Source: a virus. Taken from it: a stretch of DNA of 64,000 nt. Position 1 is the stretch's first letter; the number at the start of each line of letters is the position of its first letter. The notes below the pieces were generated by a model. It worked only from the letters and a program-made list of their open reading frames with translations. It made no database searches and was not told the DNA's origin. Shown here piece after piece: positions 623 to 63,556 of the stretch. The stretch lies in the IMG/VR virus record IMGVR_UViG_3300044712_000336, positions 1-64,000 of that record; one strand, given 5' to 3'. The position numbers were made by a program, and so were the translations under genes.

Positions 623-2158
623 TTAGTATAGTACTGCTGGTACTAATCTAACATTTTTAGTAGGATTCCATACTACACTACCAATACGTGATACATAGTG
701 GAATACATCTACATCAGTAGGAGTACCAGTTACAACTGGTGCAAACTCAGTACCATTACCTAAAAACTTAGAACCTATACCGGGTTGTACTGCATAAATA
801 TCAGGTTTACCAGCAAGTTCTACTTTCTGAATATTAGGACGACCATTGGTAGTACCAAAGTCCATAATATCAAATTCGTGTGAACTAACACGTCCACCAC
901 CAACATAAAGTTTCTTGTTACGAATAGGATCATCTTTATGTGCAGCTTTCATAAATTTAACACGAATACCATTTACACTAGCAAAACCAACTACTTGTCC
1001 AAGATTAGCTTCTACTTGATTAGTTCCAGTCCATTTGAAAGCCCTACCAGACTGATCACCCATAAATGCAGGAAGATAAGTAGGAATAAGTTCTTTCCTC
1101 ATCATCTTATTTAATTCAACCAAACCATATTCACCACCCATCATAGTAACATCACGTTGATCTTCTGGAACTCTACCTACAGCAGCATCCAAAATAATCT
1201 GTGTTAAGAAATCACTTGATAGTGAACCAGGATAGTATGGATGTACATTACCTGCATCTAACAGTTCATATAGTCCACTTCCTTCATCAGCAGCTTGACC
1301 AGTTGTAGGATCAAAGTTAAGAGTACTACCATCTGCTAATTTATTATTCTTATCAAACAAGAATTTACGTGCCCTATCCAAACGATTCTGCAACAAGAAA
1401 TTCTTCCAATAACTATCAAACCATACTTTATGTTCTTTACCTTCATTATCTAGGAATTTGAATGTATATACATTACCAAATTGTCCTTCACGATACAATG
1501 ATGTAGGAACACTAACCATAGTTCTAAATTGACTCATCCTATTTTCAAATTCAAAGGGTGCAGTAAACGTAGTACCATAACCTTCTTTTGAAAACATATT
1601 AGCCATTAAACCACCATCAGCAGACCAACGAGTACCTAGTTTTAATTCTTCTTTAGGAATGTAAACACCATCACTACCTACTAACTGTAATTTATAACGG
1701 AATAATGAAGATGAAATCATTACTGGTTGTTCTACAATCCATAATCTATATTTATTAGGATTTTCACCAGCAATGTGTTGCCCTACACCAAACCATTTTT
1801 CATTAAAGTCCATATAGAAATGACTAGCATTAGCACCAACATATTGGTTATTTGTACCTACTGGAATAGTACCAGCAGCATCTTCCCATGCACCAGCAAG
1901 AGGGATATTCTTATCAGTCATACCAATACCTAACCAACGATATACTGGTTGTTCAGATACAAATGTACTATACTTATTTACTTCACTGATAATATCAGTT
2001 CCATAAGTAGTAGAGAACATTTTTTCCACTAATTGAGAAGCATAATAAGGGTTCTCACGATACATGTTTGCCAAGTTATATTTCATTGGAAAACGTTGAT
2101 CATGGAACTTCTGTTCATATAATTGGAAAGGTCTTACTTTCCCATAATTAACTGCCAT
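623..2158 (-). CDS. Putative major capsid protein
   Basis: A 511-residue protein, close to the usual size of crAss-like major capsid proteins, in the expected order TerL, portal, scaffold, capsid. It begins MAVNYGKVRPFQLYEQKF, has no signal peptide or membrane segment, and is rich in Gly, Asn, Phe and Tyr, as expected for a HK97-type shell protein. It should build the icosahedral capsid. Base composition is less AT-extreme than in its neighbours, with more C-ending codons, which fits a highly expressed gene. The ATG is preceded by an AT-rich leader and no Shine-Dalgarno site. Identity rests on size, composition and synteny, not on a diagnostic motif. Confidence 0.8.
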   Translation of the reverse strand: MAVNYGKVRPFQLYEQKFHDQRFPMKYNLANMYRENPYYASQLVEKMFSTTYGTDIISEVNKYSTFVSEQPVYRWLGIGMTDKNIPLAGAWEDAAGTIPVGTNNQYVGANASHFYMDFNEKWFGVGQHIAGENPNKYRLWIVEQPVMISSSLFRYKLQLVGSDGVYIPKEELKLGTRWSADGGLMANMFSKEGYGTTFTAPFEFENRMSQFRTMVSVPTSLYREGQFGNVYTFKFLDNEGKEHKVWFDSYWKNFLLQNRLDRARKFLFDKNNKLADGSTLNFDPTTGQAADEGSGLYELLDAGNVHPYYPGSLSSDFLTQIILDAAVGRVPEDQRDVTMMGGEYGLVELNKMMRKELIPTYLPAFMGDQSGRAFKWTGTNQVEANLGQVVGFASVNGIRVKFMKAAHKDDPIRNKKLYVGGGRVSSHEFDIMDFGTTNGRPNIQKVELAGKPDIYAVQPGIGSKFLGNGTEFAPVVTGTPTDVDVFHYVSRIGSVVWNPTKNVRLVPAVLY

Positions 2159-10900: not shown

Positions 10901-11782
10901 CTATAACGTATTTAAAAATTTATACAATTCATAATTCCATTTAGCATCGGCTAAAGCGTTATGTTCATTAGTCTGTTTTGGGTAATTAGGTAATTTTTCT
11001 ATTTCAAATTTAGGAGGATTAATACTACCTTCTTTAATACCCTTTTTAACATAATCTTCTTCAATATCATGTTTATACTGTTGTAGGTCTAAGCAGTACA
11101 TAGGAAACCCTTTAGGTAAATCCATCATAGTTCCAAACAACTGACAAAATACTACCCAGTCGTAATCACTGTAATATCCATAAAATTCTATATTATGTCC
11201 TTCTGCTAAATCTATTCTTTCTTGTATAAATGTAGTTTCACTTACTTCTTCTTTAAACTTAATTATGTTTTCTATACGTAAAGGATTAACAAATTCAGTA
11301 ATCTCTTTAGCAATTTGTTTATTGGATTTACCGTATTTATTAAGTAATCTTTCTAAACTATTAATACAAAAATCTTTGCTAAGATATTCTATAACTTTAT
11401 TACTTGTTCCTATATAATCTGAATCTGTTTCACACAAATTGTGATGATATTCTTTAGTATGTTTACTTTTTAATTCCTTCCAAATAGGTTTCAATACATT
11501 CTCCCTAACCCATTCATTCTTCCATGCAGCTTTTAAGTTAAAGTCTTTTGATATTGCATAGTATTCTTTTGTTACTTGTGGTTTATTTGTAAATTTCATA
11601 CCATATTCTTTCATGTATTCAAATTGTTTTTCTAATGGTATCTTAGTTTCAGATTGTAACTCACCAACTATCCCTATACTAATTAAATCAACAGTAGGTT
11701 TAGTTTCACCATATTTAATTCCTAAGAAGGTTTTATCTTGTTTACCTTCAATGAACTCGCAATCCATGAAATATTTGCTCAT
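10901..11782 (-). CDS. DEDDh 3'-5' exonuclease
   Basis: A 293-residue RNase H-fold exonuclease. Exo I is MDCEF (D7, E9); a middle Asp lies in GYYSDYDWVVF (about 205-216); Exo III is H274-N-A-L-A-D279, the DEDDh signature. Such enzymes remove nucleotides from DNA or RNA 3' ends using two metal ions. Its separation from the polymerase (far away, opposite strand) suggests nucleic-acid turnover rather than proofreading. The start overlaps the stop of the upstream GIY-YIG gene by 4 nt (ATGA type), implying coupled translation. The substrate cannot be read from sequence. Confidence 0.85.
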   Translation of the reverse strand: MSKYFMDCEFIEGKQDKTFLGIKYGETKPTVDLISIGIVGELQSETKIPLEKQFEYMKEYGMKFTNKPQVTKEYYAISKDFNLKAAWKNEWVRENVLKPIWKELKSKHTKEYHHNLCETDSDYIGTSNKVIEYLSKDFCINSLERLLNKYGKSNKQIAKEITEFVNPLRIENIIKFKEEVSETTFIQERIDLAEGHNIEFYGYYSDYDWVVFCQLFGTMMDLPKGFPMYCLDLQQYKHDIEEDYVKKGIKEGSINPPKFEIEKLPNYPKQTNEHNALADAKWNYELYKFLNTL

Positions 11783-12525
11783 ATTTTCTTTATATTAAAA
11801 TTATAAACTTTTATGTTATTTTTTAAAGCTCTGTTAATTAATCCTTGATTACAGTTTGTATTACCTATTGATTTTAAATATTCACAACACTCTACTTGAG
11901 AATGAAATTCTTTATAAAAGTCATCTTTTAATAGAGCGACTTTAACTGTGCCAAACTCCCTTTTTCTTCTATCTTTTAATGGTTCATTTGCATAACTCCA
12001 TCTATATCCTCCAGCACTAAAAACTTTACCTTTACAACATTGACTTATATTGCTTTTAGATTTTATATTAGTATAGTCTTGTGCTTCTGTAATAGAAGTA
12101 AAATCCTTAATAAATTCATTATTCAAAGAATACATATTAATTTTAATAGCACAATGATGGTTACCTTTTATAATCGTTCTAGTTTTAGAATCTTCAGGGT
12201 GTTTATAGCCTTGTAAGCTTCCTGCTATTAAACAACTATTATAATCAGTTCCTTTATTAATATAAAATTGTTCCATTAATAAAACATTTTCTTGATTGCA
12301 AATACATACTATTTCAAAAGTAAAATTCTCAAAACCATATTTTTTAAATGCTCTATGCAAAACTGGTTGAGTATTTAATTCTTTTTTAACAGCCGAACAA
12401 TATTGTATATATCTATGTCTAAAATTACTAGTAGTACTTCCGATATAAATTTTATTATTTATATTATTAGTAATAGAGTAAACTCCTATTTTCCTCCAAT
12501 TATCATTTTCTACTTTGAATATCAT
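11779..12525 (-). CDS. GIY-YIG homing endonuclease
   Basis: A 248-residue free-standing endonuclease. The catalytic domain is at residues 10-95: GVYSITNNINNKIYIGST, then a conserved Arg (FRHRYIQ) and a Glu near 90 (LMEQFYIN). A NUMOD-type DNA-recognition region follows (about 125-180; FTSITEAQDY and GGYRWSYAN are typical). It is likely a selfish mobile gene cutting phage alleles that lack it. It is joined to the exonuclease gene by a 4-nt overlap, so insertion did not visibly disrupt that gene. Confidence 0.88.
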   Translation of the reverse strand: MIFKVENDNWRKIGVYSITNNINNKIYIGSTTSNFRHRYIQYCSAVKKELNTQPVLHRAFKKYGFENFTFEIVCICNQENVLLMEQFYINKGTDYNSCLIAGSLQGYKHPEDSKTRTIIKGNHHCAIKINMYSLNNEFIKDFTSITEAQDYTNIKSKSNISQCCKGKVFSAGGYRWSYANEPLKDRRKREFGTVKVALLKDDFYKEFHSQVECCEYLKSIGNTNCNQGLINRALKNNIKVYNFNIKKI

Positions 12526-12772: not shown

Positions 12773-13275
12773 TATAATAATTCCTCAAATTTAAGTAATT
12801 CAATTCCTGTATTAGTATCAGTAATACCTAATCTCTTAGCAGTAATTAATGGATCACCAAACTTAGCTTCTTCTTCTACTTGTTCATGTACAAACCATTG
12901 TAGGAAATCATAAGTTACTTCATCCTTTTCTTCCTTTATTATTGGAAGTATAGTATTATATGATGTAGTGATGGAACATTCGTGTTGGTATGCTTTATTA
13001 ACTACATCTAATAATGACATATATTCAGATGGTACTTCTGTAATTGCAGGTGTTTTTGCATTACCATTTCTATCTAAAATATAATCAATTAATTTTCTAG
13101 CATGTTTTAATTCTTCATCAGCATATTGTCTAAACTTATCTTTAGCTTTATAAAAGCCATAACAATCACACCAATTACTCATAGCATTGTAAATATGAAA
13201 TGATTGATATTCACCTTGAACTCTTATGTTAAGTAAGTTCTCTGTACGATCTGAAATACGTTTTGTTAATTCCAT
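12772..13275 (-). CDS. ftnA: Ferritin (non-heme, FtnA type)
   Basis: A full-length 167-residue ferritin. All six ferroxidase-centre ligands of E. coli FtnA are present with a constant offset of five: E22, E55, H58, E99, Q132 and E135. Flanking sequence is typical (ADEELKHARKL, FVHEQVEEEA). The family assembles a 24-mer cage that oxidises Fe(II) and stores ferric mineral. There is no Cys-bound heme site or N-terminal extension. It sits 2 nt downstream of a glycosyltransferase gene in a tight cluster. A phage copy could manage host iron or oxidative stress, or be a virion cargo; both are inferences. Confidence 0.92.
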   Translation of the reverse strand: MELTKRISDRTENLLNIRVQGEYQSFHIYNAMSNWCDCYGFYKAKDKFRQYADEELKHARKLIDYILDRNGNAKTPAITEVPSEYMSLLDVVNKAYQHECSITTSYNTILPIIKEEKDEVTYDFLQWFVHEQVEEEAKFGDPLITAKRLGITDTNTGIELLKFEELL

Positions 13276-26533: not shown

Positions 26534-27016
26534 ATGAAAATTGAATTACAATTACCTTTTAGTAATGACTATAAAGTTGGTTATATTGTTACAAATAAAG
26601 AAAATAGAAAAATGATTATACTTGTTGATAATTCTAATAGGAAAACATCTACCGCTTATGCAAGATATTTATTATCAGTTAAATTAGGTAGATATTTAGA
26701 AAGTAATGAACAAGCTGATCATATAGATGGAAATAAATGTAATGATTTTATAGATAATTTACAAGTATTAACTGCTATTGAAAACACTAGAAAATATAGA
26801 GTACAATCAAATACTTCTAGGAAAATGATAGAGTTAATATGTCCTATTTGTGGAGTTGTTTTCATAAAAGAACATAATTTATCACATTTAGTAAAAAATA
26901 GTAACTTTACAGTATGTTCAAAAGAATGTCTATATAAAATGTCTTCTTTAAAAAAATCTAAAGAAGAATTAATAGACATAGGTAATAAACAAGTAATTCG
27001 TATATTTAGAAAATAA
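26534..27016 (+). CDS. HNH homing endonuclease inside a tRNA gene
   Basis: A 160-residue HNH endonuclease. The catalytic region at about 58-90 reads RYLESNEQADHIDGNKCNDF and continues IDNLQVLT, the HNH pattern of phage homing enzymes. A C-terminal zinc module follows (LICPICGVVF, then TVCSKECLYK). The gene lies between two halves of a tRNA gene, and its stop codon is 4 nt before the T-stem. Only about 100 nt of non-coding DNA accompany it, too little for a normal group I intron core unless the core overlaps the frame. Nicking of tRNA-bearing alleles would spread it. Confidence 0.85.
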   Translation: MKIELQLPFSNDYKVGYIVTNKENRKMIILVDNSNRKTSTAYARYLLSVKLGRYLESNEQADHIDGNKCNDFIDNLQVLTAIENTRKYRVQSNTSRKMIELICPICGVVFIKEHNLSHLVKNSNFTVCSKECLYKMSSLKKSKEELIDIGNKQVIRIFRK

Positions 27017-33430: not shown

Positions 33431-34050
33431 ATCCTGTTTCAGATAATGTTGAAAGATTAATTAAGATATATACTAATAATGTAAAAGTAGTAACTGTTAC
33501 TAAGAAAGATGATTTAGGTATATCTTACGAAGAAAAGGAAATAACAGATGTTCCTTTATTAAGAAGAGATGAGGAATTAATGGATAGATATTTACTTAAA
33601 TCTTATTCAGAATACCAAGAGTATATATCAAAATTCTCTCGAAATAATAAAAGAGATATATTAATAAGATTAGATATACTATCAATAGATGGTGATAAAT
33701 TCCAAATTGAGTATATTAATATTAGATCACCTAAAGATATACTAGAAAAAGTATATCAAGACTTTGATATGAATGGTATTCCAGTAAAGGAAATATTCAT
33801 ACGTTCAGTAACAGATATAACATCAAGATTTAGTATTAAAGATATAATTGATATTTTTACTAAATATAATGAATATAAACTTACTCATAGTAATAATGAA
33901 GTAAGATTATATATACAAAAGTTATCTAAAAATATTGCAGATTTAGTTATGTTCCTTGAAGGTGTTATAACTAATAGACAGCTTGATAATATTAAAAGTG
34001 TAGATAAAGATGATGAATCATTAATTGAAGATGATAATGAACTTTTCTGA
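33415..34050 (+). CDS. Hypothetical protein, 211 aa
   Basis: Lies between Ung and DNA polymerase and overlaps both by about 15 nt, so it is coupled to them. It is helical, basic in the middle (YISKFSRNNKRDILIRLDIL), and ends in an acidic tail (DKDDESLIEDDNELF) like those of ssDNA-binding proteins. A replication accessory role is inferred from place and tail only. Confidence 0.65.
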   Translation: MEHVLNPVSDNVERLIKIYTNNVKVVTVTKKDDLGISYEEKEITDVPLLRRDEELMDRYLLKSYSEYQEYISKFSRNNKRDILIRLDILSIDGDKFQIEYINIRSPKDILEKVYQDFDMNGIPVKEIFIRSVTDITSRFSIKDIIDIFTKYNEYKLTHSNNEVRLYIQKLSKNIADLVMFLEGVITNRQLDNIKSVDKDDESLIEDDNELF

Positions 34051-36157
34051 TTATAATTATTATACATTTGATTGGGAAATTAAACCAAATTATGCTTGTG
34101 TAGTATTTAAAAGTAAAGCAGATACTTATGCAACATTTAGAATATATAATTCAAGTAATCCAGATAGTTCCTATAGTAGAAATGATATTAAGAAAATATT
34201 AGGATTACTTCAACATATAATAAGAACAGAAAGTATAATAATTTCCTATAATGGAATAGAATATGATAATCTTATTAATAATTATCTTATAAATAATCAG
34301 AATAAATTACGTGATGCTAATGCTGATTATATAACTAAATTATTATGGGAATACAATAATAAGATTATAAATACAGAAAGACATTATAGTAAAGATAAAT
34401 ATTTCAAATTTATAGATATATATAAAATGAGTGGTTTACATAAGAAGTATAAATCACTAAAAGAAGCACTAATTAATATAAAATGGCATAAAATACAAGA
34501 TTTTCCATTATCATTTAATACACCAATGGAAGATGAACATATAGATATGTTTGAATTATATTGTAAAAATGATGTTGATGGATTAGATGCTTTACGTATA
34601 TTTCTACAAAAACAAATTGATGATAGATTTGCAATATATAAACATACAGGAAATGTTAATGTAATAACTGCTGATGAAAGTAAGTTAGGTGATATAGAAT
34701 TTGAACGTATGTATTGTGAAGAATTAGGTGTATTACCTGACGATATAAAATCATTACGTACAAATAGAGGAATAATAAAATTATCAGAAGTAATTCAATC
34801 TAATGTTAAATTTAATAGTAAAAAAATGAATTTAATATTAGAACAATTACAAAATATAGAAGTGAATTGTGATATGAATATAACTAAACTTACATATGAT
34901 ATACCAACTTTTGAATATGGTGGAATTGCAATACAACTAGGTGCCGGAGGTATCCATTCCGTAGATAAAGGTAATATATTCATTACGACTGATATTTATA
35001 AGATAAAAGATATTGATGTAGCATCTGAATATCCAAATGCTATAGTAAAAATGAATGTTATTCCAGAACATATAAAACAATTAGAGAAAGAGTTAGGTAA
35101 GAATGTATTTATTCCATTAATGGAAAGAATTATAAAAGAGAGAATTGAGTTTAAACATGCTGGAATAGATAGTAAAGCATATTTATATAAAATTATGCTT
35201 AATTCAAGATATGGTAAGTTAGGAAGTATAGATAGTTGGTTATATGATAGAAAATGTGTGCTACAAGTTACTATTAACTGTCAATTATATATGTTAATGT
35301 TAGTTGAAATGTTAGTAGATGCAGGAATACAGGTAATATCTATGAATACTGATGGAATAACTTGTAAATTACATATTGATCAAATTGATAAGTATAGAGA
35401 AATATATCATAATTGGGAAAAATATACAGGATTTCAATTAGAGGAAAATGAGTATATCAAATATATAAGAATGGATATTAATGCTTATATTGCTACATAT
35501 ATAGATAAAGGAAAACTTAAAATAAAACGTAAAGGTAGATTAAATAAAGATTTAGCTACTGATGATTTACGTAAAGCATTTGATATGCCAGTTATTCCAT
35601 TAGCAGTAGAACAATATTTTCTAAATAATATTCCTGTAGTAGAAACAATTACCAATCATAAAGATATATATGATTTTTGTACATCTCAAAAGATTGATAA
35701 AAAGTTTCAAAATAAGATAAGATATATAAATCTTAATGGAACTAATAAAGAAGAAAATATACAAAGATCTGTTAGATTTTATGTAAGTAAAAATGGATAT
35801 AAGTTATATAAAGTTGATTTAGTAAAAAAGAAAGAGTTAGATACTCAAGAAGATGTTATATTACATACTAATGGAAATAGTATGAGTATTAGTAATAGAA
35901 AACTTTTAGTAGGTAAAAAAGAAAAAATACTACATAAAAGAGATACATTTAATACTAATGGTTATACTGATCATTGTGCAGGACAATTTGTTACATTACT
36001 TAATGATTATATTGAATATGATGAATTTAAGAAATATAATATTAATTATGATTATTATATAAATGAAGCAAATAAACTTATACAACAGATAAAACATGAG
36101 AATAATATAACTAAACAAATGTCAATTGAAATACCAACACAATTAAGATTATTTTAA
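34037..36157 (+). CDS. DNA polymerase, family B, with 3'-5' exonuclease
   Basis: The replicative polymerase. Numbering from an in-frame ATG-proximal TTG four codons upstream: exonuclease motifs are F15-D16-W-E18, SYNGIEYDN (about 74-82) and Y179-x3-D183; polymerase motif A is D331-VAS-E-Y336-P, motif B K389-IMLNS-R-Y396-G, motif C N441-T-D443-G. The first Asp of the usual DTD is Asn, while the catalytic Asp is kept. At about 706 residues it is short, like phage polymerases. crAss-like phages carry either family A or B; this one has B. An ATG at 34,031 is an equally possible start. Confidence 0.93.
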   Translation: MNFSDYNYYTFDWEIKPNYACVVFKSKADTYATFRIYNSSNPDSSYSRNDIKKILGLLQHIIRTESIIISYNGIEYDNLINNYLINNQNKLRDANADYITKLLWEYNNKIINTERHYSKDKYFKFIDIYKMSGLHKKYKSLKEALINIKWHKIQDFPLSFNTPMEDEHIDMFELYCKNDVDGLDALRIFLQKQIDDRFAIYKHTGNVNVITADESKLGDIEFERMYCEELGVLPDDIKSLRTNRGIIKLSEVIQSNVKFNSKKMNLILEQLQNIEVNCDMNITKLTYDIPTFEYGGIAIQLGAGGIHSVDKGNIFITTDIYKIKDIDVASEYPNAIVKMNVIPEHIKQLEKELGKNVFIPLMERIIKERIEFKHAGIDSKAYLYKIMLNSRYGKLGSIDSWLYDRKCVLQVTINCQLYMLMLVEMLVDAGIQVISMNTDGITCKLHIDQIDKYREIYHNWEKYTGFQLEENEYIKYIRMDINAYIATYIDKGKLKIKRKGRLNKDLATDDLRKAFDMPVIPLAVEQYFLNNIPVVETITNHKDIYDFCTSQKIDKKFQNKIRYINLNGTNKEENIQRSVRFYVSKNGYKLYKVDLVKKKELDTQEDVILHTNGNSMSISNRKLLVGKKEKILHKRDTFNTNGYTDHCAGQFVTLLNDYIEYDEFKKYNINYDYYINEANKLIQQIKHENNITKQMSIEIPTQLRLF

Positions 36158-42741: not shown

Positions 42742-42908
42742 TGGCTAAAGAAGTAACAACAACAGTAAAGAATCCATCAGGAGCAGTAGTTAAACAATGT
42801 TCTTGTAAACATGAATTTCAAGATGAAATACATGGTAAAGGAATGAGAGTTCATAATGTAACAACTAAAGGTAATAAATGTACTGTATGTGGAAATATTA
42901 ATCGTTAA
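42741..42908 (+). CDS. Small zinc-binding protein, 55 aa
   Basis: Reads MAKEVTTTVKNPSGAVVKQC and has CSCKHEF plus KCTVCGNINR, four Cys and a His that could bind zinc. It overlaps the previous stop by one base (TAATG). It lies directly before the FETNSSSTHS triplet and may belong to that unit. Function unknown. Confidence 0.55.
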   Translation: MAKEVTTTVKNPSGAVVKQCSCKHEFQDEIHGKGMRVHNVTTKGNKCTVCGNINR

Positions 42909-42918
42909 AATAAGTAAA

Positions 42919-43353
42919 ATGATACAAGTAAGGCAAAATGTATTTGAAACTAATAGTTCAAGTACACATAGTGTTAGTATTTCTTATGAAGGTGATTTAA
43001 CAGATATTCCAATACCAGATGATAATGGAATAGTTCATGTAGATACAGATGAATATGGGTGGGAAGAATGTGAATATAATGATTTATATAGTAGATTATC
43101 TTATGCAGCTACTTATGCTTTAAATTATGGAAGTGAAGAAAATAAAGAGTTATTAACTGAAGTTATTAAACAATACAGTGGTGCAAAAGAAGTATTATAT
43201 GATCATAATAATAATCCAGTTTATTGGAAACATGGTTATATAGACCATCAAAGTACAGACACAGTGGCTGATATATTTGAATCAAGAGAAAGTTTAGTTA
43301 ATTTTCTATTTAATCCAAATTCATATTTTATTACAGATAACGATAATCATTAA
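42919..43353 (+). CDS. FETNSSSTHS-motif protein 1
   Basis: A 144-residue protein whose N-terminus MIQVRQNVFETNSSSTHSVS is shared with the two following genes. The start is set by aligning all three at the motif; an upstream GTG is ignored. The remainder is acidic and Tyr-rich and not alignable to its neighbours. The motif recurs at the N-terminus of many phage and Firmicutes proteins of unknown function as I recall it. Adjacency to a radical SAM enzyme suggests the Ser/Thr/His stretch is a modification site or leader; this is a hypothesis. Confidence 0.72.
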   Translation: MIQVRQNVFETNSSSTHSVSISYEGDLTDIPIPDDNGIVHVDTDEYGWEECEYNDLYSRLSYAATYALNYGSEENKELLTEVIKQYSGAKEVLYDHNNNPVYWKHGYIDHQSTDTVADIFESRESLVNFLFNPNSYFITDNDNH

Positions 43354-43357
43354 AATT

Positions 43358-43600
43358 ATGATACAAATAAGAAATTCAATTTTCGAAACTAATTCCATTA
43401 GCACACATAGTATTACTATTTGTACACCAGAAGAATGGAGTAAATTAGAGTCTGGTGACTATGATGGATTAGATGAAAGATTAATAGAGAAGTTTGAAAA
43501 TAATTATAGAGATTCATATATGGAAACATATAGTTATGAAACTACTACTCCGGGTGGTGAAAAAATAAGATTATTTGGAGATTATGGAAGGGATGGTTAA
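43358..43600 (+). CDS. FETNSSSTHS-motif protein 2
   Basis: An 80-residue member: MIQIRNSIFETNSISTHSIT, then CTPEEWSKLESGDYDG, which resembles the longer CTxEEW continuation seen in relatives. The second Ser of the motif is Ile. The C-terminus ends RLFGDYGRDG. It starts 4 nt after protein 1 and overlaps protein 3 by 8 nt. Confidence 0.7.
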   Translation: MIQIRNSIFETNSISTHSITICTPEEWSKLESGDYDGLDERLIEKFENNYRDSYMETYSYETTTPGGEKIRLFGDYGRDG

Positions 43601-44063
43601 TATAAGAAAAAATGTGTTTGAAACAAATAGTAGTTCAACACACTCCATTACTATTGGCAATATAAATTCAAAACCATTAGAATTATTAAAAGATGGTATA
43701 TTAAATCCACAACTACTAATTGATAAATATGTTGCTTATAATTATGAATATAAAATAGTATGTTATAATTTAGAAGAGAAATTAGCGTTAGTAACATTAT
43801 GGATTTTGTGTGATAGATGGAATGTTACTGATGAAATTAGAGAAGAATTATTAAATATAATTAAAGAAGAGTTTAATATAGTTAAAATATTAGATTTAAA
43901 AGAGTTAAGATTTTCTTCACAAGATGATGACGATGATATATTATTTGATTATGGTTATGAAGAAGAAATTGATATTATTTCAACAAAAAAGAAGTTATAT
44001 GAATTAATAAATATTATAAAAGATGACAGTAGATTCATTAGTGATATCAAAGAAGAAAGATAA
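43593..44063 (+). CDS. FETNSSSTHS-motif protein 3
   Basis: A 156-residue protein with MVNIRKNVFETNSSSTHSIT at the start, chosen from three in-frame ATGs by alignment with its paralogues. The body is helical and acidic (EEKLALVTLWILCDRWN, SSQDDDDDILFDYGYEEE). The last 41 nt overlap the radical SAM gene, so translation is coupled. Confidence 0.7.
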   Translation: MVNIRKNVFETNSSSTHSITIGNINSKPLELLKDGILNPQLLIDKYVAYNYEYKIVCYNLEEKLALVTLWILCDRWNVTDEIREELLNIIKEEFNIVKILDLKELRFSSQDDDDDILFDYGYEEEIDIISTKKKLYELINIIKDDSRFISDIKEER

Positions 44064-44937
44064 ATTAGTAGAATATAAAAATGGTAATACTACAGTTACT
44101 ATATATAAAGATGGTACAAAAGTAAGAGAGTTTGAAGGTATTCCAGTAGTGGAACATCCTGAAAGTATGGATATTAAAATTACTAATTATTGTGATTTAG
44201 GATGTCCATATTGCCATGAAAATTCTACTATTAAAGGAAAACATTCAGATTTATTCTTACTAAAGGAAAAATTGGATATACTTCCAGCAGGTATTGAATT
44301 AGCATTAGGTGGTGGTAATCCATTATCTCATCCAAATTTAGTACAATTTTTAGAATGGTGTAAAACTAAGGGATTTATAGCTAATATAACTATTAATGAA
44401 AAACATATAAATAAGTATAATGAATTAATTATAGATTTAATAACAAGAGATTTAGTCAAAGGTATTGGTATATCTGTTACTGAAGGAAATATTAATCTTA
44501 TTAAATCATTATATAAATTATCATCAAATATAGTATTACATTTAATTGTGGGAATAAATACTATTGAACAAATTGAAGAATTATGTACTATAAAAGGTAT
44601 AAAAGTATTATTACTTGGGTACAAAACATTTGGTAGAGGAATATCATACTACTCTCAAGATATAACAGATAATATTAATAAATGGTATAAACATCTTCCT
44701 ACATTAGTAGGAAAGTTAGTATTAAGTTTTGATAATCTGGCTATTGAACAATTAAATGTAAAGAGATTATTTACATCAAAAGGATGGGATAGATTTTATA
44801 TGGGGGATGATTTTACTTTTACTATGTATATTGATGCAGTAGAACAACAATATGCTCCTACAAGTAGATCTGATGATAGACAATCTTTTAAAGATTATAA
44901 TGTAATACAATATTTCAAAACATTTAAAAATAAATAA
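44023..44937 (+). CDS. Radical SAM enzyme
   Basis: A 304-residue radical SAM protein. The 4Fe-4S site is C57-DLG-C61-PY-C64 (CxxxCxxC), followed by the GGE-type element LALGGGNPLSHPNL, which binds SAM. No SPASM or other C-terminal Cys cluster is visible, so there is one cluster only. It would generate a 5'-deoxyadenosyl radical for a difficult modification. It overlaps the third FETNSSSTHS protein and is 1 nt from a P-loop ATPase gene. The substrate is unknown: the upstream motif proteins, tRNA or nucleotides are candidates. Confidence 0.85.
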   Translation: MTVDSLVISKKKDKLVEYKNGNTTVTIYKDGTKVREFEGIPVVEHPESMDIKITNYCDLGCPYCHENSTIKGKHSDLFLLKEKLDILPAGIELALGGGNPLSHPNLVQFLEWCKTKGFIANITINEKHINKYNELIIDLITRDLVKGIGISVTEGNINLIKSLYKLSSNIVLHLIVGINTIEQIEELCTIKGIKVLLLGYKTFGRGISYYSQDITDNINKWYKHLPTLVGKLVLSFDNLAIEQLNVKRLFTSKGWDRFYMGDDFTFTMYIDAVEQQYAPTSRSDDRQSFKDYNVIQYFKTFKNK

Positions 44938-47711: not shown

Positions 47712-47969
47712 ATGAATTTTGGACAAGCAATTGAAGCCTTAAAAGAAGGTAAAAAATTACAAAGATCTGGATGGAATGGTAAAGGAATGTTTGTATATTA
47801 TGTTCCTGATAATACTTTTAAAACTTTAACAGAAGTAGCTAAAACACATTTTGGTGATGAATTAAAATTTAATGCTTATTTTGCTATAAGGAATGTAAAT
47901 AATACAGTAAGTATGTGGGTTCCATCAATTAATGATTGTTTAGCAGAAGACTGGACAATTATAGAATAA
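47712..47969 (+). CDS. tad2: Tad2-like anti-Thoeris protein (DUF2829)
   Basis: An 85-residue DUF2829 protein. Landmarks: MNFGQAIEALKEGKKLQRSG then WNGKGMFVYYV, a central variable part, AYFAIRNVNNTVSMWVPS, and CLAEDWTIIE at the end. DUF2829 was shown to be Tad2, a tetrameric sponge that captures glycocyclic ADP-ribose signals made by Thoeris ThsB and so blocks this bacterial defence. Length and motifs are complete. It lies downstream of the SSB gene and before a terminator, an accessory slot. Which signal this variant binds cannot be told. Confidence 0.85.
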   Translation: MNFGQAIEALKEGKKLQRSGWNGKGMFVYYVPDNTFKTLTEVAKTHFGDELKFNAYFAIRNVNNTVSMWVPSINDCLAEDWTIIE

Positions 47970-49785: not shown

Positions 49786-50337
49786 ATGGATAAACAGATA
49801 AATAAAGCGTTTGGTAAAAAAATATATTTATTAGGCATTGACCAAGAAGGTACAAAATATTGGTTAGAAGAACCAAAATGGGATTGTGGTTGGTATTGGG
49901 GATTTGGGTATATTGAATCATATACAAATAATGATAATCCATCATTAAGTAGGGATATAAATTCCCATCAACATTGGGAAGGAACATTGCAAGAATTAAA
50001 TATTCCCATGATGTTGGTAGGATATAAAGGAGTAAGTTATATTAACTGGAATAAAGAAGTATTAGAAAGGAAAGAATATGTACATAATCCTTATGATAAT
50101 CCATATTTAGTAGAAAAAACATTTAATGAGAAGGAAGGTTGGGAATTGGGTGAATTATTTGCACAATTTTATTTTCTAAAACAAGCTGCTGAAATGTTTA
50201 ATAGAGGTAAAGCTTATATAAGTAATACAATTATTCCTTTATGGAAAGATGATAATAAAGTTAAAGAAATTAATGAAATTATTATACCAAATGTAACTAA
50301 AAGAATATTAGAAATATTAACCCCAAAGAGTGAGTGA
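49786..50337 (+). CDS. Hypothetical protein, 183 aa
   Basis: A family frequent in Bacteroides phages. The N-terminus reads KIYLLGIDQEGTKYWLEEP, then CGWYWGFGYIES and QHWEGTLQELN, with a C-terminal helix (GWELGELFAQFYFLKQAAEM) and an IIPLWKDDNKVKEIN tail. No known domain. It overlaps the primase start by 8 nt, so translation is linked. Confidence 0.68.
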   Translation: MDKQINKAFGKKIYLLGIDQEGTKYWLEEPKWDCGWYWGFGYIESYTNNDNPSLSRDINSHQHWEGTLQELNIPMMLVGYKGVSYINWNKEVLERKEYVHNPYDNPYLVEKTFNEKEGWELGELFAQFYFLKQAAEMFNRGKAYISNTIIPLWKDDNKVKEINEIIIPNVTKRILEILTPKSE

Positions 50338-51349
50338 ATACTTATCAACGGATAAAATATTATCATCTGTACAGGAAGAATCATTATATTTCCATTACTT
50401 TGGAATAGATGTAAGTAAAAAGAAATGTAAATCTTTAATACGTGCAGATGATAGTAATGCTTCAATGAAATTTAGAAGGATCAATAATAGAATAAAATGG
50501 TCAGATTTTGGTTCAACATATAGAGATGCTGATATATTTGACTTATTATATATATCTAAAGGTTGGTCTTTCTATGAATCATTAATACATATAAATAATG
50601 ATTTTAATTTAGGATTTAAGTATAGTGATAAATATAACATTGATATTGTTGCAAGTAATCCTGTAAATACAGATTTTCTTATTCCTTCATTAAAGGAAAA
50701 TGAATCAATTGATATACAAGTAGTACTGAATAAATTTAATAACAAACATGTATTTACAAAAGATGACTTAAAATATTGGATTCAAGGTTATATTAATAAG
50801 ACTATACTAATGAAGGAACATGTATTTTCAGTTAATACTGTACTATTAAATAGTGTTCCTATAATGAGGTATCATAAGAAAGACCCTATTTTCCTGTATG
50901 TAGAAATGGTAGATAATATAAAATTCTACAAGATATATCGTCCATTACATATAGGAAAACAAGGTAAATGGTTATCTAATATACAAAATGCAAGTAAAGC
51001 AATTGGTGGATTAAAACATTTACAAGATACTAATTATATAATTATAACTAAATCTAAGAAAGATTACATGGTATTACGATGGGTATTAGGATATAATGTA
51101 GTATATATTCAGTCAGAAAGTACACCAATTGATGTTGATATAATGAGTATGTTATGGAATAAATATGAAACTATATATAGTTTATTTGATAATGATGATG
51201 CAGGATATACTTTAAATGAGAAATTTGCAGAAGTAAATGAAACAATACCTATATTTTATAACACCAATGATGGAAAAGATAGTTGGGATGTTATATTAAA
51301 ATACGGTATGGAAAAAACAAGAACAATAATTAATAAGTTAATGATATGA
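50330..51349 (+). CDS. DnaG-type primase (Toprim)
   Basis: Makes RNA primers for lagging-strand synthesis. The 339-residue protein starts at GTG, with no ATG nearby. The N-terminal part (CKSLIRADDSNASMKF, IKWSDFG, ADIFDLLY) resembles the zinc-binding CHC2 domain of phage primases but has lost the metal ligands. The Toprim core has NYIIITKSKKDYMVLRW and YSLFDNDDAGY (DxD type). The C-terminal helicase-binding domain is short. It overlaps the next gene by 4 nt. Confidence 0.82.
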   Translation: MSEYLSTDKILSSVQEESLYFHYFGIDVSKKKCKSLIRADDSNASMKFRRINNRIKWSDFGSTYRDADIFDLLYISKGWSFYESLIHINNDFNLGFKYSDKYNIDIVASNPVNTDFLIPSLKENESIDIQVVLNKFNNKHVFTKDDLKYWIQGYINKTILMKEHVFSVNTVLLNSVPIMRYHKKDPIFLYVEMVDNIKFYKIYRPLHIGKQGKWLSNIQNASKAIGGLKHLQDTNYIIITKSKKDYMVLRWVLGYNVVYIQSESTPIDVDIMSMLWNKYETIYSLFDNDDAGYTLNEKFAEVNETIPIFYNTNDGKDSWDVILKYGMEKTRTIINKLMI

Positions 51350-52033: not shown

Positions 52034-52156
52034 ATGCCAAAATGTTATGATTGTGGTGATCCACTAGATGATGATATAGTAACATGTACTAATTATGGGA
52101 ATTGTGATGCAGCAGATTTACAAATAGATCAAAGTAATAATACAGATAATGAGTAA
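52034..52156 (+). CDS. Tiny zinc-ribbon-like protein, 40 aa
   Basis: MPKCYDCGDPLDDDIVTCTN then YGNCDAADLQ: a CxxC plus a C-x4-C arrangement in an acidic background. It overlaps the decarboxylase start by 8 nt. A small metal-binding protein, role unknown. Confidence 0.5.
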   Translation: MPKCYDCGDPLDDDIVTCTNYGNCDAADLQIDQSNNTDNE

Positions 52157-52679
52157 TATTAAACATGGTATGAGAATACCTAAATCATTCTTTATTACAT
52201 CTGGATATGGTGAAAGTGATAATACATTACATGCAGGATCATATCATATAATGTTAAATATGATGGGTATTGCAGGACAAAATATTATGAATTATAGTAG
52301 TGTATTACCAGCTAATTGTATAGAAATAGAAAAACCTAACTGGTTGTATAAATCAGAAGTAAGAGGTGCTGTAATGGAAGTTATAATGAGCTCCTGTAAT
52401 GGAAGAGCAGAAGAATTACTATCAGCAGGAATTATATATGCTTATACTTATGAAGATGAAGAAATGACAAAATGTACAGGTGGATTAGTATGTGAAATTA
52501 ATGGTAGTTATAGTGATGAATCTCTTGAATATAAATTACAAGAAGCATTGAAGGAAATATATAATAATGGATTTTCACATGAATACTTAGGTAGTCCTAC
52601 TATTATTAAGAAATCATTTACACCTGAATTACAATATGGTAGTGTAGGTGTAGCTTTATGTTTTATTGATTATGAATAA
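52149..52679 (+). CDS. Pyruvoyl-dependent arginine decarboxylase
   Basis: Converts arginine to agmatine and CO2, a route to polyamines. The 176-residue proenzyme has the family signature PKSFFITSGYGESDNTLHAG, then the self-cleavage pair S50-S51 in NYSSVLPANCIE: cleavage makes the new Ser51 end a pyruvoyl cofactor, so no PLP is needed. GGLVCEINGSYSDESLE carries the Glu of the active site. The length matches archaeal and bacterial PvlArgDC. It stands alone among unknown small genes with no agmatinase nearby, so the product would feed host enzymes or the virion DNA counter-ion pool. Confidence 0.9.
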   Translation: MSNIKHGMRIPKSFFITSGYGESDNTLHAGSYHIMLNMMGIAGQNIMNYSSVLPANCIEIEKPNWLYKSEVRGAVMEVIMSSCNGRAEELLSAGIIYAYTYEDEEMTKCTGGLVCEINGSYSDESLEYKLQEALKEIYNNGFSHEYLGSPTIIKKSFTPELQYGSVGVALCFIDYE

Positions 52680-62857: not shown

Positions 62858-63556
62858 ATGAGTAAACATTGCCCAATAATGCAAAGAATGAAATCTAACT
62901 ATGAAGATAGATATAGATTTCATTTAACAAGAAGAACACCAATAATTATAAGATTAGATGGTAAAGCATTTCATACTTATACTAAAAATCTAAATAAACC
63001 ATTTGATATAGGTTTAATTGAGGATATGCAGAATACTACTAAATTTTTATGTGAAAATATACAAGGTACAAAAATAGGTTATACTCAATCTGATGAAATA
63101 AGTATATTAATAACTGATTATGATACTATAGATACAGCAGCGTGGTTTGATTATAACGTACAAAAAATATGTAGTATTAGTAGTAGTTTAGCTACTGCTT
63201 ACTTTAATCAATTAAGGAGAGAAAGAGAAATATATAAATTAGCTTATTTTGATAGTAGAGTATTTAATATTCCAAGAGAAGAAGTATCAAATTATTTTTT
63301 AGCCAGACAAAAAGATGCTGTAAGAAATAGTATATCAATGTTGGCTCAATCATTATATTCACATAAACAATTAGAATATAAGAATATTAATGATATGCAG
63401 GAAATGTGTTTTCAAAAAGGATATAATTGGAATGATTTGGAATATTATAAAAAAAGAGGTAGTACTATTATTAAAAATAATGAATGGATTAATATAGAAA
63501 CACCATTGATATTTACACATGAGTATTTTGAACAATTTGTAAATATTTATATATAA
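62858..63556 (+). CDS. Thg1-like 3'-5' nucleotidyltransferase
   Basis: A tRNA-His guanylyltransferase family protein of 232 residues that adds nucleotides in the 3'-to-5' direction. Metal ligands are D34 in IIIRLDGKAFHTYT and D79-E80 in GYTQSDEISILI; the surrounding YRFHLTRRTPIIIR and CSISSSLATAYFNQL are typical. Bacterial and phage Thg1-like proteins usually repair truncated tRNA 5' ends instead of adding G-1. The phage's own broken or minimal tRNA-like elements, or host tRNAs damaged by defence nucleases, are possible substrates. Confidence 0.88.
   Translation: MSKHCPIMQRMKSNYEDRYRFHLTRRTPIIIRLDGKAFHTYTKNLNKPFDIGLIEDMQNTTKFLCENIQGTKIGYTQSDEISILITDYDTIDTAAWFDYNVQKICSISSSLATAYFNQLRREREIYKLAYFDSRVFNIPREEVSNYFLARQKDAVRNSISMLAQSLYSHKQLEYKNINDMQEMCFQKGYNWNDLEYYKKRGSTIIKNNEWINIETPLIFTHEYFEQFVNIYI

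What the first reader, a model, noticed from the sequence alone, without database searches (positions are those of the whole stretch)
52149..52679. Pyruvoyl-dependent arginine decarboxylase in a crAss-like phage
The family signature and the Ser-Ser self-cleavage site are intact. The enzyme yields agmatine, a polyamine precursor. No agmatine-using enzyme is encoded nearby. A phage could use it for polyamine supply for DNA packaging, acid resistance of the gut host, or interference with host arginine pools.
Basis: partly seen in the sequence, partly recalled or inferred. Interest (0 to 1): 0.75.

Follow-up and report, generated by a model that had tools for sequence, protein, structure and literature searches.

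The report
Agmatine-making enzyme in crAss-like phage
A crAss-like virus of bacteria carries an intact gene for a small self-activating enzyme that should turn the amino acid arginine into agmatine, the first step towards polyamines, and unrelated phages have picked up genes of the same family several separate times, which suggests they gain from making polyamines in infected cells.

Summary
Window 52149-52679 (+) encodes a 176-aa pyruvoyl-dependent arginine decarboxylase (Pfam PF01862, E 1.1e-21, full length) with the Ser50-Ser51 cleavage pair, Asn45 and Glu116 intact. It sits in the early/replication region of a true Crassvirales genome, so it is not host contamination. The closest cellular relatives (about 50% identity, Bacteroidales) lie beside agmatinase and bis-guanidino-azanonane synthase genes, both agmatine users. 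The next clade (Porphyromonas, Parabacteroides) has agmatine deiminase and N-carbamoylputrescine amidase homologues, and in 11 of 12 genomes no PLP-type SpeA. The phage gene falls between these groups, so arginine-to-agmatine is well supported by context, though untested. The phage encodes no agmatine-using enzyme; the likeliest role is feeding the host's own polyamine pathway. Eight further IMG/VR records carry the family, including a second Crassvirales genome; the tree forces at least four changes of the phage label. No match was found in 50,697 annotated phage records, PHROGs, or the held papers; known phage pyruvoyl arginine decarboxylases have the unrelated AdoMetDC fold. One caution: the position of M. 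jannaschii Asp35 is His here and throughout this subfamily. Gut origin, acid resistance and arginine interference are unsupported.

The parts
52149..52679 (+). pyruvoyl-dependent arginine decarboxylase proenzyme gene (P0001, 176 aa)
   Evidence: PF01862 E 1.1e-21; 71% identical phage homologue L006
52149..52298 (+). predicted beta chain, residues 1-50, ending with Ser50
   Evidence: alignment to MJ residues 1-52; PDB chain 1mt1_A is residues 1-52; inferred, cleavage not tested
52299..52676 (+). predicted alpha chain, residues 51-176, Ser51 becoming the pyruvoyl group
   Evidence: alignment to MJ Ser53; PDB chain 1mt1_B carries residues from 54 on after one leading position; inferred
52245..52247 (+). 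codon of His33, at the position of M. jannaschii Asp35 (His in the whole Bacteroidales/phage subclass)
52281..52283 (+). codon of Asn45, equivalent to MJ Asn47
   Evidence: invariant in all groups
52296..52301 (+). codons of Ser50-Ser51, the self-cleavage pair
   Evidence: invariant in all groups
52494..52496 (+). codon of Glu116, equivalent to MJ Glu109
   Evidence: invariant in all groups
52034..52156 (+). small cysteine-containing ORF (40 aa) whose end overlaps the enzyme's start by 8 nt; same co-directional gene run
623..2158 (-). Crassvirales major capsid protein (identity of the genome)
   Evidence: PF23898 Crass_capsid E 2.3e-58; tblastn to crAss001, DAC15, DAC17
34025..36154 (+). family B DNA polymerase, marker of the early/replication region holding the enzyme gene
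   Evidence: tblastn to crAss-like DNA polymerases

Best explanation
The gene makes a functional pyruvoyl-dependent arginine decarboxylase of the histidine-decarboxylase-like PvlArgDC family. The proenzyme cuts itself between Ser50 and Ser51, Ser51 becomes the pyruvoyl cofactor, and the two-chain enzyme decarboxylates L-arginine to agmatine without needing PLP. The phage has no enzyme to use agmatine, so agmatine enters the host's own route (agmatine deiminase plus N-carbamoylputrescine amidase, or agmatinase) to putrescine and spermidine-type polyamines, which raise translation and neutralise nucleic acid charge during replication and packaging. Shown here: intact gene, family membership, conserved catalytic residues, phage location, agmatine-enzyme context of cellular relatives, repeated entry into phages. 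Inferred: self-cleavage, arginine specificity, benefit to the phage.
For: PF01862 over the full length; S50/S51, N45 and E116 aligned with S52/S53, N47 and E109 and invariant across the three cellular subclasses and the first five phage copies, and readable in the four further phage copies. Solved M. jannaschii entries include the cleaved chains and forms altered at residues 53, 47 and 109. Nearest cellular relatives (49-52% identity) are followed by agmatinase (TIGR01230, above cut-off) and/or 1,9-bis(guanidino)-5-aza-nonane synthase (NF002699, above cut-off); NF002699 is present in 14 of 19 such genomes and on the same contig within about 4 kb in 13 of the 14 (coordinates). In the Porphyromonas/Parabacteroides clade 12 of 12 genomes have paired AguA- and AguB-like genes and 11 of 12 lack full-length SpeA. 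The phage protein branches between these two groups. A 71% identical copy exists in another phage contig (L006). In the L007-L009 phage lineage dN is far below dS. The phage label needs 5 changes on the tree, at least 4 forced by supported branches. Phage dependence on spermidine is documented for other phages (PMC9992855).
Against: No expression, cleavage or activity data. The position of MJ Asp35, which I recall (not tested here) as a contact of the substrate side chain, is His33 in the whole subclass, and I know of no characterised enzyme of that type. NCBIfam equivalog models score below their cut-offs, although cellular members do too. AguA/AguB matches in hosts are below the equivalog cut-offs. 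The AlphaFold model was poor (mean pLDDT 44), so the fold was not confirmed. The phage's real host is unknown, so the presence of an agmatine pathway in it is assumed.
Confidence: 0.62

Rival explanations
1. The enzyme is an active pyruvoyl decarboxylase but acts on a different amine-bearing substrate (for example ornithine, lysine or a guanidino compound other than arginine), because the subclass has His in place of Asp35.
For: H33 is invariant in all class-3 and class-3 phage sequences, while class 2 has Asp and class 1 Glu there. AdoMetDC-derived phage decarboxylases have shifted substrate before (PMC9992855, PMC10407285).
Against: Cellular class-3 genes lie beside two different agmatine-consuming enzymes or occur in genomes with AguA/AguB and no SpeA; both facts point to agmatine as the product.
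Confidence: 0.12
2. The enzyme makes agmatine, but its use is pH homeostasis or acid resistance of the infected cell through arginine/agmatine exchange.
For: Some PvlArgDC enzymes are components of arginine/agmatine exchange systems (Chlamydia AaxB, from memory). Decarboxylation consumes a proton.
Against: No antiporter family was seen in the scanned ORFs; cellular relatives sit with biosynthetic enzymes, not antiporters; habitat is unknown.
Confidence: 0.06
3. The gene drains host arginine to disturb host metabolism or a host defence, agmatine being a by-product.
For: No agmatine-using enzyme in the phage. A Tad2-like anti-defence gene lies 4.2 kb upstream, so anti-defence genes are present in the region.
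Against: I know of no defence fuelled by arginine in a way that this would stop; the reported turnover of such enzymes is low (kcat/KM 380 M-1 s-1 for the M. jannaschii enzyme, quoted in PMC9992855), which makes depletion an unlikely aim.
Confidence: 0.06
4. The gene is a passenger or a chance host gene in the assembly without function for the phage.
For: It is rare: nine viral records found in all.
Against: It lies in a co-directional early gene run, overlaps its neighbour, and has phage-like GC3 (10.7% against 12.2 +/- 3.8%). An independent phage contig holds a 71% identical copy with different neighbours, and a second Crassvirales genome holds another copy. Catalytic residues are kept.
Confidence: 0.06

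Closest known systems
PvlArgDC, pyruvoyl-dependent arginine decarboxylase of Methanocaldococcus jannaschii (MJ0316; PDB 1mt1, 1n13, 1n2m, 2qqc, 2qqd; PF01862)
   Same: Family, length, Ser-Ser cleavage pair, Asn47 and Glu109 equivalents
   Different: About 21% identity; Asp35 replaced by His33; encoded by a phage; no experiment on the phage protein
Bacteroidales class-3 PvlArgDC in an operon with agmatinase and 1,9-bis(guanidino)-5-aza-nonane synthase (loci L150-L156)
   Same: Closest cellular relatives (49-52% identity), same His33 subclass, all catalytic residues
   Different: Cellular, with agmatine-using enzymes beside it; the phage copy stands alone and is shorter at the N terminus
Phage AdoMetDC-derived pyruvoyl arginine decarboxylase (pelagiphage HTVC201P SpeD homologue, PMC9992855)
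   Same: Phage-encoded, pyruvoyl-dependent, expected product agmatine, relies on the host for the next steps
   Different: Unrelated fold and family (class 1b AdoMetDC); activity measured there, not here
Chlorovirus PBCV-1 arginine decarboxylase pathway (PMC9992855)
   Same: Virus-encoded arginine-to-agmatine step for polyamines
   Different: PLP enzyme of the ODC fold, with the virus also encoding the downstream enzymes

Membership tests
PvlArgDC (PF01862) | Full-length match above the curated Pfam cut-off | tested here: met
   77.8 bits against 22.7; profile 1-160 of 161
PvlArgDC (PF01862) | Ser-Ser self-cleavage pair with Asn47 and Glu109 equivalents | tested here: met
   S50-S51, N45, E116; invariant across three cellular subclasses
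PvlArgDC (PF01862) | Acidic residue at M. jannaschii position 35 (a trait of other subclasses, not a published family definition) | tested here: not met
   His33 in the phage and in the whole Bacteroidales class 3; Asp in class 2, Glu in class 1. A subclass trait, so it does not exclude family membership
PvlArgDC (PF01862) | NCBIfam equivalog cut-offs (TIGR00286, NF009064) | tested here: inconclusive
   32.2 and 31.2 bits against 106.95 and 207; cellular class-3 members also fall below
PvlArgDC (PF01862) | Trimeric interlocked fold of the PvlArgDC type | tested here: inconclusive
   AlphaFold model of mean pLDDT 43.9, not usable
PvlArgDC (PF01862) | Autocatalytic cleavage and arginine decarboxylation | not testable with these tools
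   Needs purified protein
AdoMetDC-derived phage arginine decarboxylase (SpeD homologues) | Match to the AdoMetDC family | tested here: not met
   Only PF01862 is hit by the protein
Crassvirales (for the genome) | Crassvirus capsid, muzzle and ring proteins, with two divergently oriented gene blocks | tested here: met
   PF23898, PF25731, PF24228, PF25702, PF25710; gene layout
Arginine-dependent acid resistance system | Arginine/agmatine antiporter with the decarboxylase | tested here: not met
   No permease or antiporter family among the scanned ORFs

The most novel reading that the evidence does not exclude
Phages of the Bacteroidota, among them at least two Crassvirales lineages, have repeatedly and independently captured PF01862 arginine decarboxylases, so that agmatine (rather than ornithine or AdoMet steps) is a recurrent point at which these phages boost host polyamine synthesis, with a His-type active site that defines an uncharacterised subfamily.
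Probability: 0.5. Interest if true: 0.62.

Novelty: new variant of a known kind. Interest (0 to 1): 0.52.

Why it matters
Phage-encoded polyamine enzymes are known, and a pyruvoyl arginine decarboxylase of another fold has been shown in pelagiphages. This would add a second, unrelated family doing the same step in phages, place it in the crAss-like phages, whose effect on host metabolism is largely unknown, and make it testable whether such phages draw on host agmatine pathways. The repeated capture by separate phage lineages suggests selection. The subclass with His at the Asp35 position, also found in Porphyromonas and Parabacteroides, appears to be without a characterised member.

Tried and rejected
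Host contamination: rejected by phage neighbours, matching GC3, the 8-nt overlap and independent phage copies. Search for near relatives of the neighbouring primase-like protein (50330-51349) to find sister genomes without the gene: no match. Structure prediction: poor model, no fold search run. Sequence search of PDB with the single protein: no relative found; only the profile touched 1n2m, at E 0.008. One-clade test of the first five phage copies: not rejected with sparse cellular sampling (p 0.395), rejected once closer cellular relatives were added (p 0.0008); long branches remain a caution. The test that the window clade and the second Crassvirales copy form one clade is not decisive (p 0.08). 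The 5116-aa protein in L002 and ORFs under 60 aa were not scanned against Pfam.

Full report
Observation. The ORF at 52149-52679 (+) starts with ATG, encodes 176 aa and has no interruption. Against Pfam it hits one family only, PF01862 PvlArgDC, E 1.1e-21, 77.8 bits (cut-off 22.7), profile 1-160 of 161. Two NCBIfam models for the same enzyme hit at 1e-7 to 1e-8, under their equivalog cut-offs; cellular members of the same subclass also stay under them. PHROGs has no matching family.

Active site. Solved M. jannaschii structures include the cleaved chains 1-52 and 54-165 and proenzyme or mutant forms altered at residues 53, 47 and 109. The phage residues S50, S51, N45 and E116 align with MJ S52, S53, N47 and E109. 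These four are invariant in 81 Bacteroidales class-3 sequences, 30 class-1 and 19 class-2 sequences and the first five phage sequences, and can be read in the four further phage sequences. MJ Asp35 is replaced by His33 in every class-3 sequence, cellular or phage; class 2 has Asp and class 1 has Glu. From memory, Asp35 contacts the substrate side chain; this was not tested here, so the His subclass carries some doubt about substrate.

The genome. The window is part of a 104,710-bp IMG/VR record, linear. Pfam finds the crassvirus capsid, muzzle and ring proteins, tblastn of the capsid matches crAss001, DAC15 and DAC17 end to end at about 25%, and the DNA polymerase matches crAss-like polymerases. 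Structural genes lie on the minus strand and the replication genes on the plus strand, with giant proteins of 1417 and 5116 aa at 64-84 kb. The enzyme gene lies in the plus-strand replication region, overlaps the preceding small ORF by 8 nt and has GC3 of 10.7% against 12.2 +/- 3.8% for the region. Contamination is therefore unlikely. Host and habitat are not known.

No partner in the phage. Pfam scans of about 100 ORFs of the record show no arginase/agmatinase, agmatine deiminase, carbon-nitrogen hydrolase, spermidine synthase, deoxyhypusine-synthase-like or amino-acid permease family (list of the third scan cut at 25 of 35 families, the rest no better than about 1e-3), and a six-frame search for PF00491 finds none.

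Cellular relatives and what they do. In a sample of 395 Bacteroidota genomes, 188 carry PF01862, falling into three score classes. Class 3, to which the phage belongs, includes Porphyromonas, Parabacteroides and Tannerella (41-43% identity) and other Bacteroidales (up to 52%). In the latter, the gene is followed by agmatinase (TIGR01230, 221-233 bits, cut-off 174) and/or 1,9-bis(guanidino)-5-aza-nonane synthase (NF002699, 572 bits in L153, cut-off 500); 14 of 19 genomes have NF002699 above cut-off, 13 of them within about 4 kb of the decarboxylase. In 12 genomes of the Porphyromonas/Parabacteroides group, AguA-like and AguB-like genes lie side by side in all 12, and a full-length PLP SpeA was found in only one. 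Both contexts point to agmatine as the product of class-3 enzymes. The phage protein branches between the two groups.

Other phages. IMG/VR scans found eight further records: L006 (71% identity, 5.6-kb contig), L007-L009 (37-40%, one lineage with terminase, portal and ribonucleotide reductase, pooled over the three records), L161 (45%, 86 kb), L162 (39%, in a 99.7-kb record with a crassvirus capsid, E 2.9e-103), and two class-1 copies, L163 and L164. Scans use short peptide patterns, so these are minimum counts. No class-3 relative was found in 50,697 annotated phage records. On the tree the phage label needs 5 changes, at least 4 forced by supported branches; a single clade of the first five phage copies is rejected (p 0.0008), with long branches as a caution. 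L006 and the window share the enzyme at 71% but polymerase and exonuclease at only 28-29%, with different neighbours, which suggests exchange between phages or unusual constraint. In the L007-L009 lineage dN/dS is 0.04-0.10 (dS near saturation).

Function. The best explanation is an active arginine decarboxylase that feeds agmatine into the host's own putrescine and spermidine route. Shown: intact gene, family, catalytic residues, phage location, agmatine context of relatives, repeated capture. Inferred: cleavage, arginine specificity, expression, benefit. Acid resistance and arginine drain are less likely: no antiporter, biosynthetic context of relatives, and low reported turnover for the family (380 M-1 s-1 for MJ, quoted in PMC9992855).

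Comparison with what is known. A 2023 survey characterised phage polyamine enzymes; its phage pyruvoyl arginine decarboxylases derive from AdoMetDC, and it names the M. jannaschii type only as a non-homologous enzyme (PMC9992855). A follow-up treats only the AdoMetDC family (PMC10407285). No held paper joins 'crAss-like' with 'arginine decarboxylase'. The library is partial, and the supplements of those papers were not read. I file this as a new variant of a known kind: phage polyamine enzymes are known, this enzyme family in phages appears not to be.

Noticed in passing
window 47712-47966 (+): Tad2-like (Thoeris anti-defence 2) protein, PF11195 E 9.2e-28; a similar ORF lies just upstream of the decarboxylase in the second crAss-like phage (L162 6583-6870).
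   Followed up: partly
window 62858-63553 (+): Thg1-type tRNA-His guanylyltransferase, PF04446 E 3.9e-29, in a window without tRNA genes.
   Followed up: no
window 12775-13275 (-): Ferritin-like protein (PF00210, E 1.1e-33) in the structural block.
   Followed up: no
window 42889-44060 (+): Three adjacent ORFs begin with near-identical motifs (R..(V/I)FETNS.STHS), apparently tandem paralogues of unknown function.
   Followed up: no
window 44023-44934 (+): Radical SAM protein (PF04055, E 2.8e-7) of unclear substrate.
   Followed up: no
L006 2874-3398 and window 52149-52679: The decarboxylase is 71% identical between two phages whose polymerase and exonuclease are only 28-29% identical.
   Followed up: partly
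L150-L156: Bacteroidales operon of pyruvoyl arginine decarboxylase, agmatinase and 1,9-bis(guanidino)-5-aza-nonane synthase, with the His33 subclass of decarboxylase.
   Followed up: yes
L158 8364-9482 (record G004): ORF that looks like an IMP dehydrogenase/GMP reductase in a phage of the L007-L009 lineage (by eye).
   Followed up: no
window 11782-12525 (-) and 26534-27013 (+): GIY-YIG/NUMOD1 and HNH homing-type endonucleases.
   Followed up: no
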